Shown here piece by piece: positions 3,167 to 6,704 of a stretch of DNA of 6,704 nucleotides (position 1 is the first letter of the stretch; each line of letters opens with the position of its first letter). The stretch comes from Bacteroidota bacterium (GTDB taxonomy: Bacteria > Bacteroidota > Bacteroidia > Chitinophagales > Chitinophagaceae). Location: NCBI GenBank assembly GCA_023429365.1, contig JAEYVW010000478.1:1-6704 (forward strand), in the 5' to 3' direction. The notes under the pieces are model-generated. The model had not been told where the DNA came from and did not search any database. It worked only from the letters and a program-made list of their open reading frames with translations. A program made the position numbers and the translations under genes.

Positions 3167-4126
3167 ATGCGAATTTTAGTTACCGGCGGCGCCGGGTTTA
3201 TCGGTTCTAATCTGGTTGAAAAATTATTATCCGATGAAAGAATAAGTTTTGTACGCGTGCTTGACAACCTGGCGACAGGTTCGCGTGAAAATATCAGCGG
3301 TTATCTAAGTAATCCAAAGTTTGAATTTATCGAAGGAGATATCCGTTCGTTTGAGACCTGCCTCGAAGCTTGCGAGGGTATTGACGCCATTACCCACCAG
3401 GCGGCACTGGGATCGGTACCCCGTTCGATCAAGGATCCATTAACAACCAATGAAGTCAATATTACTGGTACGTTAAATATTTTTACCGCGGCAAAAGAAA
3501 AAGGAATCAGGCGCGTGGTGTATGCGGCAAGTTCATCCACGTATGGCGACCATCCCGGGCTGCCAAAAGTAGAAGATAAGATCGGTAATCCCCTTTCGCC
3601 GTATGCGGTCACCAAGTTTGTAAACGAATTATATGCCCGTGTGTATGCCAGCTTATACGGCATGGAGTTTATTGGACTGCGATACTTCAATATTTTCGGG
3701 CCGCGCCAGAATCCGCAGGGGCCTTATGCTGCCGTGATCCCTTTGTTTGTAAAAGCGATACTTGAAAGTAAAGCACCTGTTATAAATGGAGACGGTAGCC
3801 ATAGCCGCGATTTTACATTTGTTGACAATGCGGTCCAGGCTAATATCGCTGCATTGCTAACCACAAGCAGGGAAGCGGTAAACCAGGTATATAATATTGC
3901 CTGTGGCGAACAGACTTCCCTTCTACAATTATATGATGCATTAAGAGTAGAAGCCGGCAGCTCCGTTGCACCGCAACATGGACCTGAGCGTGCAGGCGAT
4001 GTGAAGCATAGCCTGGCTGACGTGTCAAAAGCAAAACAGTTACTGGGTTATCATCCTGCCGTGACCGTCAGGGATGGCCTGAAGACAACCTTTAACTGGT
4101 ATAAGAACAACCCCAATCGTTTATAA
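3167..4126 (+). CDS. wbpP: UDP-GlcNAc 4-epimerase, WbpP/TviC-like extended SDR
   Basis: 319-residue NAD-dependent extended short-chain dehydrogenase/reductase predicted to interconvert UDP-GlcNAc and UDP-GalNAc (or their uronic acids) in the cytoplasm for polymer precursor supply. Visible motifs: nucleotide-binding GGAGFIG (7-13), HQAALGSVPRSI (77-88), SSS (122-124) in AASSSTYGDHPG, catalytic Y146xxxK150 in SPYAVTK, LRYFNIFGPRQ (171-181), and GDVKHSLADVSKAK (277-290). These segments closely recall Pseudomonas WbpP and Salmonella TviC. S282 occupies the position of E. coli GalE Tyr299 (WbpP Ser306), the residue that governs acceptance of N-acetylated sugars; this mapping is from remembered sequences. 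The protein lacks the extra N-terminal segment of WbpP. The start is firm because an in-frame TAA lies at 3158-3160. A generic GalE-like role or a uronate epimerase role remains possible. Confidence 0.85.
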   Translation: MRILVTGGAGFIGSNLVEKLLSDERISFVRVLDNLATGSRENISGYLSNPKFEFIEGDIRSFETCLEACEGIDAITHQAALGSVPRSIKDPLTTNEVNITGTLNIFTAAKEKGIRRVVYAASSSTYGDHPGLPKVEDKIGNPLSPYAVTKFVNELYARVYASLYGMEFIGLRYFNIFGPRQNPQGPYAAVIPLFVKAILESKAPVINGDGSHSRDFTFVDNAVQANIAALLTTSREAVNQVYNIACGEQTSLLQLYDALRVEAGSSVAPQHGPERAGDVKHSLADVSKAKQLLGYHPAVTVRDGLKTTFNWYKNNPNRL

Positions 4127-4128
4127 TT

Positions 4129-4158
4129 TCAATCTCAACCTTAACCTTAATCTCAACC
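4129..4158 (+). repeat. TYAAYC hexamer array just upstream of rfbB
   Basis: Five tandem hexamers (tcaatc, tcaacc, ttaacc, ttaatc, tcaacc) fit T(C/T)AA(C/T)C and fill most of the 35-base gap between the epimerase stop and the rfbB ATG, ending three bases before that ATG. The array occupies the ribosome-binding region and contains no Shine-Dalgarno-like purine run. The same motif recurs inside rfbB at 4518-4540. Confidence 0.75.
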
Positions 4159-4161
4159 TAA

Positions 4162-5220
4162 ATGCCCAAAACCATATTCATCACCGGTGGCGCAGGGTTT
4201 ATCGGATCACATGTTGTCCGCCTGTTTGTAACCAAATACCCAGACTACCAGATCGTCAATCTCGATGCGCTGACCTATGCCGGTAATCTTGAGAATCTGC
4301 GTGATATTGAGAACGCCGCCAATTACAAGTTTGAAAGAATAAACATTCTTGATACTGCTGCCCTGGAAGAAATATTCGCGAAGTATCAACCACAGGGTGT
4401 GATTCATCTTGCTGCGGAGTCGCATGTCGACCGGTCGATCGTTTCTCCCCTTGATTTTGTTTATACAAATGTGATCGGTACCGTCAATCTCCTCAATGTC
4501 GCAAAAAAGACCTGGTCTCAACCTCAATCTCAACCTAATCTCTTCTACCACGTTTCCACCGACGAAGTATTCGGCGCTTTGGGTGAAAGCGGATTTTTTA
4601 CTGAAGAGACCAGGTACGATCCGCATTCTCCGTACAGCGCGTCAAAGGCGGCTTCGGATCATTTTGTGCGCGCCTATCATGATACATATGGACTGCCTGT
4701 GGTGGTGAGCAACTGCTCCAATAACTACGGCCCAAACCATTTTCCAGAGAAACTGATCCCGCTTTTTATCAATAATATTATTACCAAAAAGCCTCTGCCG
4801 GTTTATGGTGACGGGCTTTACACCAGGGACTGGCTTTTTGTAAAAGACCATGCGTCAGCGATCGACCTGGTGTTTCATAAGGGCAAGCGTGGTGATACCT
4901 ACAATATTGGTGGCTTTAATGAATGGAAAAATATTGACCTGGTCAAACTGCTTTGCCGGCTGATGGATGAGAAACTTGGCAATCCTGCCGGTACCAGCGA
5001 GCAGCTGATCACCTATGTAAAAGACCGTCCCGGCCACGACCGCCGCTATGCGATTGATGCAAGCAAAATAAATCGCGAACTAGGTTGGAAGCCATCCGTT
5101 ACGTTTGAAGAAGGATTGTCTCGTACCATCGACTGGTACCTGGCAAATACTGAATGGCTGCAGCATGTGACTTCTGGCGAGTATCAGAATTATTACGAGG
5201 AACAATACTCCAAACGCTGA
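4162..5220 (+). CDS. rfbB: dTDP-glucose 4,6-dehydratase
   Basis: 352-residue extended SDR that converts dTDP-D-glucose to dTDP-4-dehydro-6-deoxy-D-glucose using bound NAD+, the second step toward dTDP-L-rhamnose and other 6-deoxysugars. Seen in order: TGGAGFIGS (8-16), LDALTYAGNLENL (34-46), HLAAESHVDRSI (82-93), STDEVFG (132-138) with the catalytic T133-D134-E135, YSASK (Y158, K162), NCSNNYGPNHFPEKLIP (184-200), YTRDWLFVKDH (220-230) and DRPGHDRRYAID (288-299). Length and motif order are normal for RmlB. An in-frame TAA at 4159-4161 directly before the ATG fixes the start. The oddity is residues 119-126 (SQPQSQPN), encoded by a short tandem repeat in the loop before the STDEVFG strand, where the family is variable in length; the enzyme is probably still active. 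Its pathway partner rfbA lies downstream but is separated by the GxxExxY cassette. Confidence 0.96.
   Translation: MPKTIFITGGAGFIGSHVVRLFVTKYPDYQIVNLDALTYAGNLENLRDIENAANYKFERINILDTAALEEIFAKYQPQGVIHLAAESHVDRSIVSPLDFVYTNVIGTVNLLNVAKKTWSQPQSQPNLFYHVSTDEVFGALGESGFFTEETRYDPHSPYSASKAASDHFVRAYHDTYGLPVVVSNCSNNYGPNHFPEKLIPLFINNIITKKPLPVYGDGLYTRDWLFVKDHASAIDLVFHKGKRGDTYNIGGFNEWKNIDLVKLLCRLMDEKLGNPAGTSEQLITYVKDRPGHDRRYAIDASKINRELGWKPSVTFEEGLSRTIDWYLANTEWLQHVTSGEYQNYYEEQYSKR
4518..4540 (+). repeat. TYAAYC hexamer repeat inside rfbB
   Basis: Three hexamers (tcaacc, tcaatc, tcaacc) followed by a shortened one (taatc). The 12-mer tcaatctcaacc at 4524-4535 is identical to 4129-4140 upstream of the gene. It is read in frame as part of SQPQSQPN (residues 119-126), so the array causes no frameshift. 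Confidence 0.75.
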
Positions 5221-5242: not shown

Positions 5243-5275
5243 TTAAACCACAGCGGGCACAGCGAACACGACGAG
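5243..5275 (+). repeat. Left inverted repeat of the GxxExxY cassette
   Basis: The first 18 bases match the right arm perfectly in inverse orientation. Over 33 bases, 27 match. After the leading ttaaac, the arm consists of three 9-mers, each beginning with CAC: cacagcggg (5249-5257), cacagcgaa (5258-5266) and cacgacgag (5267-5275). It starts 22 bases after the rfbB stop. Confidence 0.85.
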
Positions 5276-5322
5276 GATCCGATTATGTTTCCGGGTTATT
5301 TTGGTAATAGAGAGAGTGGGGG

Positions 5323-5727
5323 ATGCATTGCAAAACGTTCATAAAGATGCATGAGAACGAGATAGGAACTATACTTTTAGATGCTACATTTCATGTACAT
5401 AAAGAATTAGGCCCGGGGCTACTTGAAAGTGCTTATGAAACGTGTCTTGCATACGAGTGTGTTCAAAGAAATTTATCTATCCAAACACAGGTTACCTTGC
5501 CACTTATCTATAAAGAGGTAAAATTGGAATGTGGGTATCGGATTGACTTAAAATTGGAAAACAAGGTTATAGTTGAGATTAAATCGGTAGAAACCTTAAA
5601 TGATGTCCACCTGGCGCAGATGATAACCTATCTTAAGTTATCGGAATGTAAGCTGGGGTATTTGATAAACTTTAATGTAAAATTGCTTAAGAACGGCATA
5701 AGACGGGTTGTTATCGGTGAGATGTGA
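5323..5727 (+). CDS. GxxExxY family protein (PD-(D/E)xK nuclease-like fold)
   Basis: 134 residues from the first ATG. Family members usually begin close to the NEI.. segment, so the ATG at 5347 (giving 126 residues) may be the real start. The diagnostic motif is G32-L-L-E35-S-A-Y38, preceded by FHVHKELGPG. A PD-(D/E)xK-like core is intact: D75 in GYRIDLKLENK, then E85-I-K87 in VIVEIKSVE, followed by Q99 and Y103 in HLAQMITYLKL, resembling the QxxxY motif of RecB-type nucleases. It ends with the typical LGYLINFNVKLLKNGIRRVV. The family has no established function that I know of; nucleic-acid binding or cleavage is only suggested by the fold. No signal peptide or membrane segment is seen. The gene differs from its neighbours in base composition, has no link to sugar metabolism, and is enclosed by inverted repeats, suggesting a passenger or selfish gene rather than part of the polysaccharide pathway. 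Confidence 0.9.
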   Translation: MHCKTFIKMHENEIGTILLDATFHVHKELGPGLLESAYETCLAYECVQRNLSIQTQVTLPLIYKEVKLECGYRIDLKLENKVIVEIKSVETLNDVHLAQMITYLKLSECKLGYLINFNVKLLKNGIRRVVIGEM

Positions 5728-5765
5728 AAATAGTTCGAAGAGGGTCTGGTAAACAATATAGTAAG

Positions 5766-5798
5766 CTCGCTGTGCACTCCGTGCCCGCTGTGGTTTAA
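5766..5798 (-). repeat. Right inverted repeat of the GxxExxY cassette
   Basis: Reverse complement of the left arm, perfect over 5781-5798. Read on the minus strand it is ttaaac followed by three 9-mers, again each starting with CAC: cacagcggg (5792-5784), cacggagtg (5783-5775) and cacagcgag (5774-5766). It begins 38 bases after the GxxExxY stop and ends 47 bases before the rfbA start. It is too far from the left arm to act as an ordinary terminator hairpin. Confidence 0.85.
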
Positions 5799-5845: not shown

Positions 5846-6704
5846 ATGAAAGGTATAATATTGGCAGGGGGTTCGGGTACAAGGTTATATCCTATTACCA
5901 AGGCCATCTCAAAACAATTAATGCCTATCTATGATAAGCCGATGATCTATTACCCGCTTTCCACTTTGATGATGGCTGGCATACGGGAAATTCTGATCAT
6001 CACCACCCCGGAAGACAACGCCTCTTTCAGGCGCTTGCTCGGTGATGGCTCGCAGGTAGGCTGCCGGTTTGAATATGCCATACAGGAAGTGCCCAACGGG
6101 CTGGCCCAGGCATTTGTGATCGGCGCCGATTTTATTGGCACTGACAAAGTAGCCCTTGTACTCGGCGATAATATATTTTATGGTGTCGGCCTCGGCCGCC
6201 AGCTTAAAGCACTCAGCCAGATCGAGGGTGGTTATGTATTTGCTTACCAGGTAAGCGACCCTGAGCGGTATGGGGTGGTGGAATTTGACACTGATATGAA
6301 AGCTATCAGTATTGAGGAGAAACCCGCTCAACCCAAATCAAATTATGCCGTACCCGGACTTTACTTCTATGATAATGATGTGGTAAAAATTGCCAAAGAG
6401 CTGCAACCTTCCGCACGTGGCGAATATGAGATCACCGATGTAAACAAGGAATACCTGCGCCAGGGAAGATTGAAAGTTGCAGTACTCGACCGCGGAACTG
6501 CATGGCTCGATACTGGTACCTTCGATTCATTGAGCGATGCCAGCGAATTCGTAAGGGTGATCGAAAAAAGACAGGGTACCAAGATCGGGTGTATTGAAGA
6601 AATCGCCTATCGCAACGGGTTTATTGACAAAACACAGATACTGGCACTCGCAGATGCGCTGAATAAAAGCGGTTATGGCATTTACTTAAAGAAGATGGTC
6701 ACCT
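5846..6704 (+). CDS. rfbA: Glucose-1-phosphate thymidylyltransferase, 3' end cut by window
   Basis: 286 codons are read from ATG 5846 to the window edge without a stop. RmlA proteins are usually about 285-295 residues, so only a few C-terminal residues should be missing. It condenses glucose-1-phosphate and dTTP to dTDP-glucose, the substrate of RfbB, and is normally feedback-inhibited by dTDP-rhamnose. Motifs: [13 protein letters not shown] (6-18) with the nucleotide-binding [25 protein letters not shown] (22-39), LGDNIFYG (106-113) with the metal-binding D108, IEEKP (156-160), [10 protein letters not shown] (167-176), GEYEITDVN (192-200) and [10 protein letters not shown] (216-225). The leader (ataattaatatacacac-like) is A/T-rich with no Shine-Dalgarno sequence, as is common in Bacteroidota. 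rfbC and rfbD would be expected further downstream. Confidence 0.96.

What the first reader, a model, noticed from the sequence alone, without database searches (positions are those of the whole stretch)
5243..5798. GxxExxY gene packaged between perfect 18-bp inverted repeats, splitting rfbB from rfbA
Seen: an 18-bp perfect inverted repeat (27/33 over the full arm) encloses exactly one complete gene of a family without known function, and the unit sits between consecutive dTDP-sugar genes. Known, from memory: GxxExxY genes are patchily distributed, and accacagagg-type repeats are frequent in environmental genomes. Inference: the nuclease-like protein and its end repeats form a minimal mobile or selfish unit that carries its own end-recognition sequence, comparable to REP/RAYT or other solo-nuclease systems.
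Basis: partly seen in the sequence, partly recalled or inferred. Interest (0 to 1): 0.78.

Follow-up and report, generated by a model that had tools for sequence, protein, structure and literature searches.

The report
Nuclease gene with matching end repeats
A gene for a small predicted DNA-cutting protein sits between two mirror-image arrays of a short DNA word, and in relatives of this protein from other bacteria the word changes together with the start of the protein, so the protein likely reads its own end repeats and may be the core of a little-known selfish element.

Summary
A perfect 18-bp inverted repeat (27/33 over the arm) encloses one GxxExxY gene between rfbB and rfbA. Each arm is three 7-bp words on a 9-bp step (CACAGCG type). 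This is a family trait: inverted arms score >=18 at 44 of 77 GxxExxY loci against 6 of 196 neighbour genes. The words belong to the protein. They follow protein relatedness while DNA farther out does not. In Nostoc one orthologous site carries four types; word and protein N-terminus switch together while gene body and flanks do not. Residues 16 and 19 of the predicted first helix are among the best predictors of the word. Gene-less arrays occur, up to 61 hits per genome, many repeated inside MITE-like contexts. I infer a PD-(D/E)XK nuclease that reads its own end arrays: REP/RAYT-like logic, unrelated enzyme. Movement is not shown. The window copy is old: relative L001 shares the site with diverged arms, while 26 other family loci lack it. 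Searches of an open-access library found no such system.

The parts
5243..5275 (+). left arm: TTAAAC edge followed by three heptamer words on a 9-bp step (CACAGCG 5249-5255, CACAGCG 5258-5264, CACGACG 5267-5273)
   Evidence: the same word type occurs in the left arm of L001 at the same site and in L003 at a site without flank similarity
5766..5798 (-). right arm, inverted: CACAGCG 5792-5786, CACGGAG 5783-5777, CACAGCG 5774-5768; outer 18 nt identical to the left arm
5323..5727 (+). GxxExxY gene, 134 aa (probable start M9 at 5347); predicted PD-(D/E)XK fold with D75, E85 and K87 all present
5353..5409 (+). codons of predicted N-terminal helix 1 (residues 11-29); residues 15, 16, 19 and 20 are the candidate word-reading face
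   Evidence: helix limits; covariation with the arm word; natural switch in Nostoc
4162..5220 (+). rfbB-like gene, left neighbour
   Evidence: orthologous junctions; name recalled
5846..6703 (+). rfbA-like gene, right neighbour (runs off the window)
   Evidence: orthologous junctions; name recalled

Best explanation
The unit is a GxxExxY gene whose predicted PD-(D/E)XK nuclease likely recognises, through its first helix, the short DNA word repeated in the two inverted arms around the gene, and would use those arms as the ends of a small selfish element. Shown here: the arms are a family trait, the words belong to the protein rather than to the site, the word switches together with the protein N-terminus, and arrays with the same words occur without a gene. 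Inferred: several copies of the protein bind side by side on one face of the DNA (the 8-10 bp step is close to one helical turn), bring the two inverted arrays together, and cut there; the repair or copying that follows keeps the unit in place, allows allele exchange, and now and then seeds new arrays. Not shown: binding, cutting, or any movement.
For: Association: IR score >=18 at 44/77 loci vs 6/196 neighbour genes (Fisher p 3e-23); arm step 8-10 bp in 57 of 69 loci with IR >=16. Ownership: protein identity vs arm 6-mers (79 loci, pairs <80% identical) Mantel r 0.24, 0/1000 permutations reach it; DNA 500-1000 bp out r -0.05. Switch: one Nostoc site, 30 loci, four types A CGCAAAG, B1 CGCGAAG, B2 CGCCAAG, B3 CGCAGAG; of 158 exact copies of these words in the arms 152 are the type's own, 28 of 30 loci have it exactly in both arms (types were named from the words, so the independent facts are the agreement of the two arms and of the N-terminus). 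B2 and B3 gene bodies are as alike between types as within (0.938 both) while left arm plus N-terminus is 0.67 vs 0.92. Before VIGAAIEVH the protein reads AYA or VYA in 5/5 B2 (in L291 only after a stop in frame) and LTGK or LTGE in 8/8 B3. Flank identity does not follow type (0.891 vs 0.893). Code: in 55 representatives residues 19 and 16 lead for word positions 5 and 6; at <70% identity (46) residue 16 K/R/N/Q goes with A at position 5 in 18/19 and E/G/S with G in 9/10. Dispersal: three-unit arrays 60 hits in G009, 48 in G002, reversed-pattern control 0; B2 word 5-25 hits per B2 genome vs 0-4 in other typed genomes, p 9e-5. Occupied and empty versions of two sites.
Against: No movement seen; the Nostoc unit stays at one site (29 of 30 cluster, L297 matches reversed) and the window copy is shared with L001. 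Without the two arm copies the solo-array/allele link is weak for A (p 0.10), B3 (0.22) and B1 (0.53), leaving B2 (1e-4) and the pooled test (10 of 10,000). 13 of 20 arrays fetched in G088 share one MITE-like context, so counts are not independent. G130 has 61 B2-word hits but no typed gene. The residue-16 classes were chosen after seeing the data; the hold-out gave 12/12 for K/R/N but no E/G/S case, and only 14 of 91 hold-out loci had a word of this shape. As a block, residues 13-24 do not beat the rest (p 0.10-0.36), residue 61 ranks beside 16, and for the whole word at <70% identity residue 125 ranks first. The 70-nt right-arm comparison did not separate types (0.59 between vs 0.51 within), probably because it runs into varied outer DNA. 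Neighbours on one common strand match the gene's strand in 28 and oppose it in 6, which DNA-level movement does not predict.
Confidence: 0.55

Rival explanations
1. RNA-level unit, like the 23S rRNA intervening sequences: the two arms pair in the transcript, the gene lies in the loop, and the protein binds or cuts that RNA (excision, or control of its own message).
For: Sense-strand bias 28 vs 6. The arms pair in the predicted RNA fold of the unit. In Nostoc B types the left array is in frame just after an ATG. The S23 protein, known from rRNA IVS elements with terminal inverted repeats cut by RNase III (PMC4990558, passages seen), sits between arms of short words in the same genomes.
Against: Of 20 dispersed arrays fetched in G088 only 1 has the exact inverted word within 300 bp downstream, so most would form no hairpin. 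The 8-10 bp step fits DNA turns. The best fold matches are mostly DNA nucleases, though Foldseek also lists tRNA splicing endonucleases. The whole-unit RNA fold is not unusual (z -1.42).
Confidence: 0.2
2. Immobile self-regulation: the arrays are operators that the protein binds to control its own gene; solo arrays are mere passengers of other repeats or decay products.
For: Long residence at one site; left array close to the start codon; 13 of 20 solo arrays in one shared MITE-like context.
Against: A second, matching array behind the gene is not needed for an operator; gene-less arrays in differing contexts (7 of 20); 82-93% identical proteins at sites without flank similarity; a conserved nuclease active site.
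Confidence: 0.13
3. Passive association: GxxExxY genes land in, or are carried by, repeat-rich intergenic DNA and have no functional tie to the repeats.
For: The words are frequent in some of these genomes, also in MITE-like contexts.
Against: Words in both arms change together with the protein N-terminus at one fixed site; neighbour genes lack the arms; DNA farther out shows no such signal.
Confidence: 0.05

Closest known systems
REP elements and REP-associated tyrosine transposases (RAYT); REPINs
   Same: One nuclease-type gene between two inverted copies of a repeat that is also dispersed without the gene; distinct repeat types near distinct proteins; RAYTs described as single-copy and seemingly unable to move themselves (PMC2817692 and PMC3116915, passages seen).
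   Different: The enzyme is PD-(D/E)XK, not the Pfam Transposase_17 (IS200/IS605-related) domain; the arm is an array of heptamers rather than one GC-rich palindrome with a GT(A/G)G head; inverted gene-less pairs are rare in what I fetched; mobilisation not shown.
Intervening sequences of 23S rRNA with S23 (four-helix bundle) protein
   Same: A small ORF between terminal inverted repeats, called a selfish element (PMC4990558, passages seen).
   Different: Different protein family; intergenic, not in rRNA. S23 genes in the nine genomes searched have arms with a 7-bp step, a parallel rather than the same element.
Restriction-endonuclease-like nucleases (Cas4, BamHI, Hjc folds)
   Different: In the best match the common core begins at residue 30, after helix 1, the part that covaries with the word (some other matches, such as BamHI, begin earlier). 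No methylase was looked for.
Heptanucleotide tandem repeats (TAACTGA of Beggiatoaceae; STRR of cyanobacteria, the latter name recalled)
   Same: Short tandem words in intergenic DNA of overlapping host groups (PMC4679880, passages seen).
   Different: S23, four helix and nuclease do not occur in that paper's text; GxxExxY words step by 8-10 bp. A link of 7-bp words to S23 is my inference from 30 loci.

Membership tests
GxxExxY protein family (TIGR04256 / PF13366 PDDEXK_3) | Profile score over the curated cut-off | tested here: met
   136.8 bits vs 35; 134.9 vs 22
GxxExxY protein family (TIGR04256 / PF13366 PDDEXK_3) | GxxExxY motif and PD-(D/E)XK residues | tested here: met
   G32, E35, Y38, D75, E85, K87 invariant in 50 sequences
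PD-(D/E)XK nuclease fold | Predicted fold matches solved members | tested here: met
PD-(D/E)XK nuclease fold | Nuclease activity | not testable with these tools
   needs purified protein
REP/RAYT | Transposase_17 / IS200-IS605-related tyrosine transposase domain | tested here: not met
   only PDDEXK_3 is over its cut-off
REP/RAYT | Gene flanked by two inverted repeat units | tested here: met
REP/RAYT | Each unit a single GC-rich palindrome with GT(A/G)G head | tested here: not met
   units are tandem heptamers
REP/RAYT | Same repeat dispersed in high copy without the gene | tested here: inconclusive
   60 and 48 hits in two cyanobacteria, 13 in one and 0-3 in 11 other genomes, 61 in G130; partly shared MITE-like contexts
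Insertion sequence / MITE | Target-site duplication and clean empty site | tested here: inconclusive
   one site without arm trace (L168) among 30 Chryseobacterium loci, others occupied or scarred; no duplication could be defined at about 75% flank identity
23S rRNA intervening sequence | Located in 23S rRNA and encoding S23 protein | tested here: not met
   between two protein genes; PDDEXK_3 protein

The most novel reading that the evidence does not exclude
GxxExxY units are a previously unrecognised class of selfish DNA in which a PD-(D/E)XK nuclease reads a heptamer word with a simple helix-to-DNA code (residues 16 and 19) and spreads or defends arrays of that word; S23 four-helix proteins with 7-bp word arms are a second, parallel class, and together they are the source of much of the short tandem repeat DNA of cyanobacteria and Bacteroidota.
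Probability: 0.35. Interest if true: 0.95.

Novelty: new variant of a known kind. Interest (0 to 1): 0.85.

Why it matters
GxxExxY proteins occur in many environmental bacteria and carry no functional name in the libraries searched. A protein-repeat pairing with natural allele switches at one site gives them a specific, testable job, offers a compact readable protein-to-DNA code in a nuclease fold, and suggests an origin for short tandem repeat arrays. If the code holds, the family is a ready-made set of small sequence-specific nucleases.

Tried and rejected
Own-genome search: no genome is held for the window. Literature: repeat strings in 2 papers, which by title and abstract start are about mammalian heart cells and the eye; GxxExxY in 2 papers, one passage each, neither about repeats. 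Whole-unit RNA fold: not unusual. Phage carriage: no match in 50,697 phage records, 2 loci in IMG/VR, 8 of 72,556 plasmid records: not phage-borne as a rule at that sensitivity. First Mantel run was wrong because minus-strand loci were not turned; one search replaces it. Recent insertion at the window site: rejected because L001 shares the site. Clean allele-word dispersal for all four words: only B2 is strong once arm copies are removed. Block test of residues 13-24: not significant. Hold-out test of the residue-16 rule: too few informative loci. Right-arm identity: uninformative.

Rows dropped or parts used: one search used 77 of 81 loci (250 bp needed on both sides); one search kept 102 distinct of 111 loci, scored 100, and used the 79 with IR >=14 in the Mantel test; words were readable in 71 of 102; alignment A1 holds 50 loci that I picked, window and L097 included. 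In Nostoc 33 of 53 genomes have a >=70% relative of L097; 30 were typed, G116, G131 and G136 were not fetched and count as untyped. Junctions: 30 of 114 matching genomes fetched, 27 with both genes. The 60 Chryseobacterium copies were picked by me from the capped list. S23 loci: 30 of 72 matches fetched, no neighbour-gene control run for them. Several match lists were capped. MITE, STRR and rfb names are recalled, not searched.

Full report
What is in the window. Searches confirm an inverted repeat with arms at 5243-5290 and 5751-5798; the outer 18 nt are perfect and 27 of 33 pair over the arm. One ORF lies between them, 5323-5727 (+), which scores as TIGR04256 and PF13366. Read closely, each arm is three heptamers on a 9-bp step: CACAGCG, CACAGCG, CACGACG on the left, CACAGCG, CACGGAG, CACAGCG on the right. 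The unit lies between rfbB- and rfbA-like genes (names recalled) on the same strand. No whole genome is held for the window.

Is it a family trait? One scan of species genomes gave 126 hits, of which the best 80 became loci. A local inverted-repeat score over 250-bp flanks reaches 18 at 44 of 77 GxxExxY loci and at 6 of 196 other genes in the same loci (Fisher p 3e-23). In a larger set of 100 loci it is 56 of 100, and where the arms score >=16 (69 loci) the internal step is 8-10 bp in 57. Words differ between loci: CGCAAAG, CGCAGAG, CACAGAG, CGCAACG, CGCAGAT and others. It is not universal: of 60 Chryseobacterium copies that I picked from the list, 42 score >=18, but one orthologue group keeps only 2 of 29.

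Do the words belong to the protein? Protein identity predicts arm-word similarity among pairs under 80% identical (79 loci, r 0.24, 0 of 1000 permutations reach it), while DNA 500-1000 bp away shows nothing (r -0.05). Proteins 82-93% identical occur at sites with no flank similarity.

The Nostoc switch. Of 53 genomes in the genus of G009 (Nostoc favosum by its record title), 33 hold a >=70% relative of the L097 protein; 30 loci were read and lie at one orthologous site (29 cluster directly, L297 matches reversed). The site carries four types with words CGCAAAG (12), CGCGAAG (5), CGCCAAG (5) and CGCAGAG (8), next to an ACGAAC edge; only heptamer positions 4 and 5 differ, and the spacers are 2 and 2 bp in the first type, 1 and 2 in the others. 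Types were named by their words, so the tally that 152 of 158 exact word copies are the type's own, with 28 of 30 loci having it exactly in both arms, mainly shows that left and right arms agree. The independent fact is the protein: CGCCAAG and CGCAGAG types have gene bodies equally alike between and within types (median 0.938), while left arm plus N-terminal codons drop to 0.67 against 0.92. Before VIGAAIEVH the first reads AYA or VYA in 5 of 5 (in L291 only after a stop in frame), the second LTGK or LTGE in 8 of 8. The right arm, about 350 bp away beyond the shared body, carries the matching word too, although a plain 70-nt identity of that side did not separate types (0.59 between, 0.51 within). 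Flank identity does not follow type (0.891 vs 0.893), so types exchange independently of the neighbouring DNA.

Gene-less arrays. Three-unit CGCARAG arrays give 60 hits in G009, 48 in G002, 13 in G007 and 0-3 in 11 other genomes; the reversed-pattern control is 0 in all 14. These counts include the arms of GxxExxY genes and a few overlapping hits. Of 40 fetched examples 32 begin right after GAAC (counted by eye), as the arms of L097 and L102 do, and their words match those of GxxExxY genes in the same genomes. Gene-less inverted pairs exist (L242, L269). Among 30 typed genomes the CGCCAAG word has 5-25 hits in its own type and 0-4 elsewhere (p 9e-5; 1e-4 without arm copies); the other three give p 0.011, 0.006 and 0.052, but 0.10, 0.53 and 0.22 without arm copies (A, B1, B3); pooled permutation 0 of 10,000, or 10 of 10,000 without arm copies. 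Related genomes were not corrected for. Arrays also ride in other repeats: 13 of 20 fetched in G088 share one MITE-like context. G130 has 61 CGCCAAG hits but no typed gene.

Presence, absence and age. At a Chryseobacterium site (30 loci) some genomes carry the unit, several keep a solo arm scar, and one (L168) shows no trace; at a second Nostoc site short versions keep arm ends. For the window, L001 has the same gene order, epimerase-like gene, rfbB, GxxExxY, rfbA, with diverged arms of the same word type. In the family of that genome 114 of 117 genomes match; of 30 loci fetched 27 hold both genes, only L001's own has the unit, 12 have a direct junction of at most 123 bp and 14 have longer spacers, without a GxxExxY hit. 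So the unit entered before the window and L001 parted, or was lost elsewhere.

A parallel. All 9 genomes searched with TIGR02436 (S23 four-helix protein) hold it, 72 matches. Of 30 fetched S23 loci 19 score >=18, and among 23 scoring >=16 the step is 7 or 14 bp in 18; no neighbour-gene control was run for these. S23 is known from 23S rRNA intervening sequences with terminal inverted repeats (PMC4990558, passages). This is a lead, not part of the main claim.

Mechanism and verdict. Shown: arms, ownership of words, co-switching, gene-less arrays, presence/absence. Inferred: helix 1 reads the word, several copies bind along the array, the two ends are brought together and cut. Open: DNA or RNA as substrate (sense bias 28 vs 6 of 51 loci, speaks for some transcript effect) and whether anything moves. 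It works like REP/RAYT (PMC2817692, PMC3116915, passages) but is not a member: the catalytic domain and repeat form differ. My searches of the open-access library (listings, with passages of six papers) showed no paper linking GxxExxY or PDDEXK_3 to flanking repeats; subscription papers are mostly not held.

Noticed in passing
L111-L140 (30 S23 loci in G001-G009): Genes for the S23/four-helix bundle protein are also flanked by inverted arms of short tandem words, but with a 7-bp step (7 or 14 in 18 of 23 with IR >=16) and other words (GGAGTTA, AATTCGC, TTCAGTG).
   Followed up: partly
L329-L348 (G088) and L230-L249 (G009): Many word arrays sit in one shared MITE-like context per genome (ends like GTAAGTCCT or CTTAACTGA; MITE is my label) and seem to have been amplified with it.
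   Followed up: partly
L082:1895-1984: A roughly 90-bp insertion in the right arm of a Nostoc unit, with similar stretches at many other places in Nostoc genomes.
   Followed up: no
L201-L229: A Chryseobacterium GxxExxY group with mostly decayed arms (2 of 29 score >=18): possible domestication.
   Followed up: partly
window 4122-4161 and 4517-4538: Short direct repeat CTTAACCTTAATCTCAACC just before rfbB, with a 91% copy inside rfbB.
   Followed up: no
Nostoc B-type loci such as L282 and L287: The left array is in frame after ATGGAAACGAAC, so it may be translated (METNR-QDAKDAK, METNR-RGAENAE).
   Followed up: no
51 GxxExxY loci of L001-L080 and the window: Sense bias: both neighbours on the gene's strand in 28, both opposite in 6.
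   Followed up: partly
G130: 61 CGCCAAG array hits but no typed GxxExxY allele; the hits lie on many small contigs.
   Followed up: no
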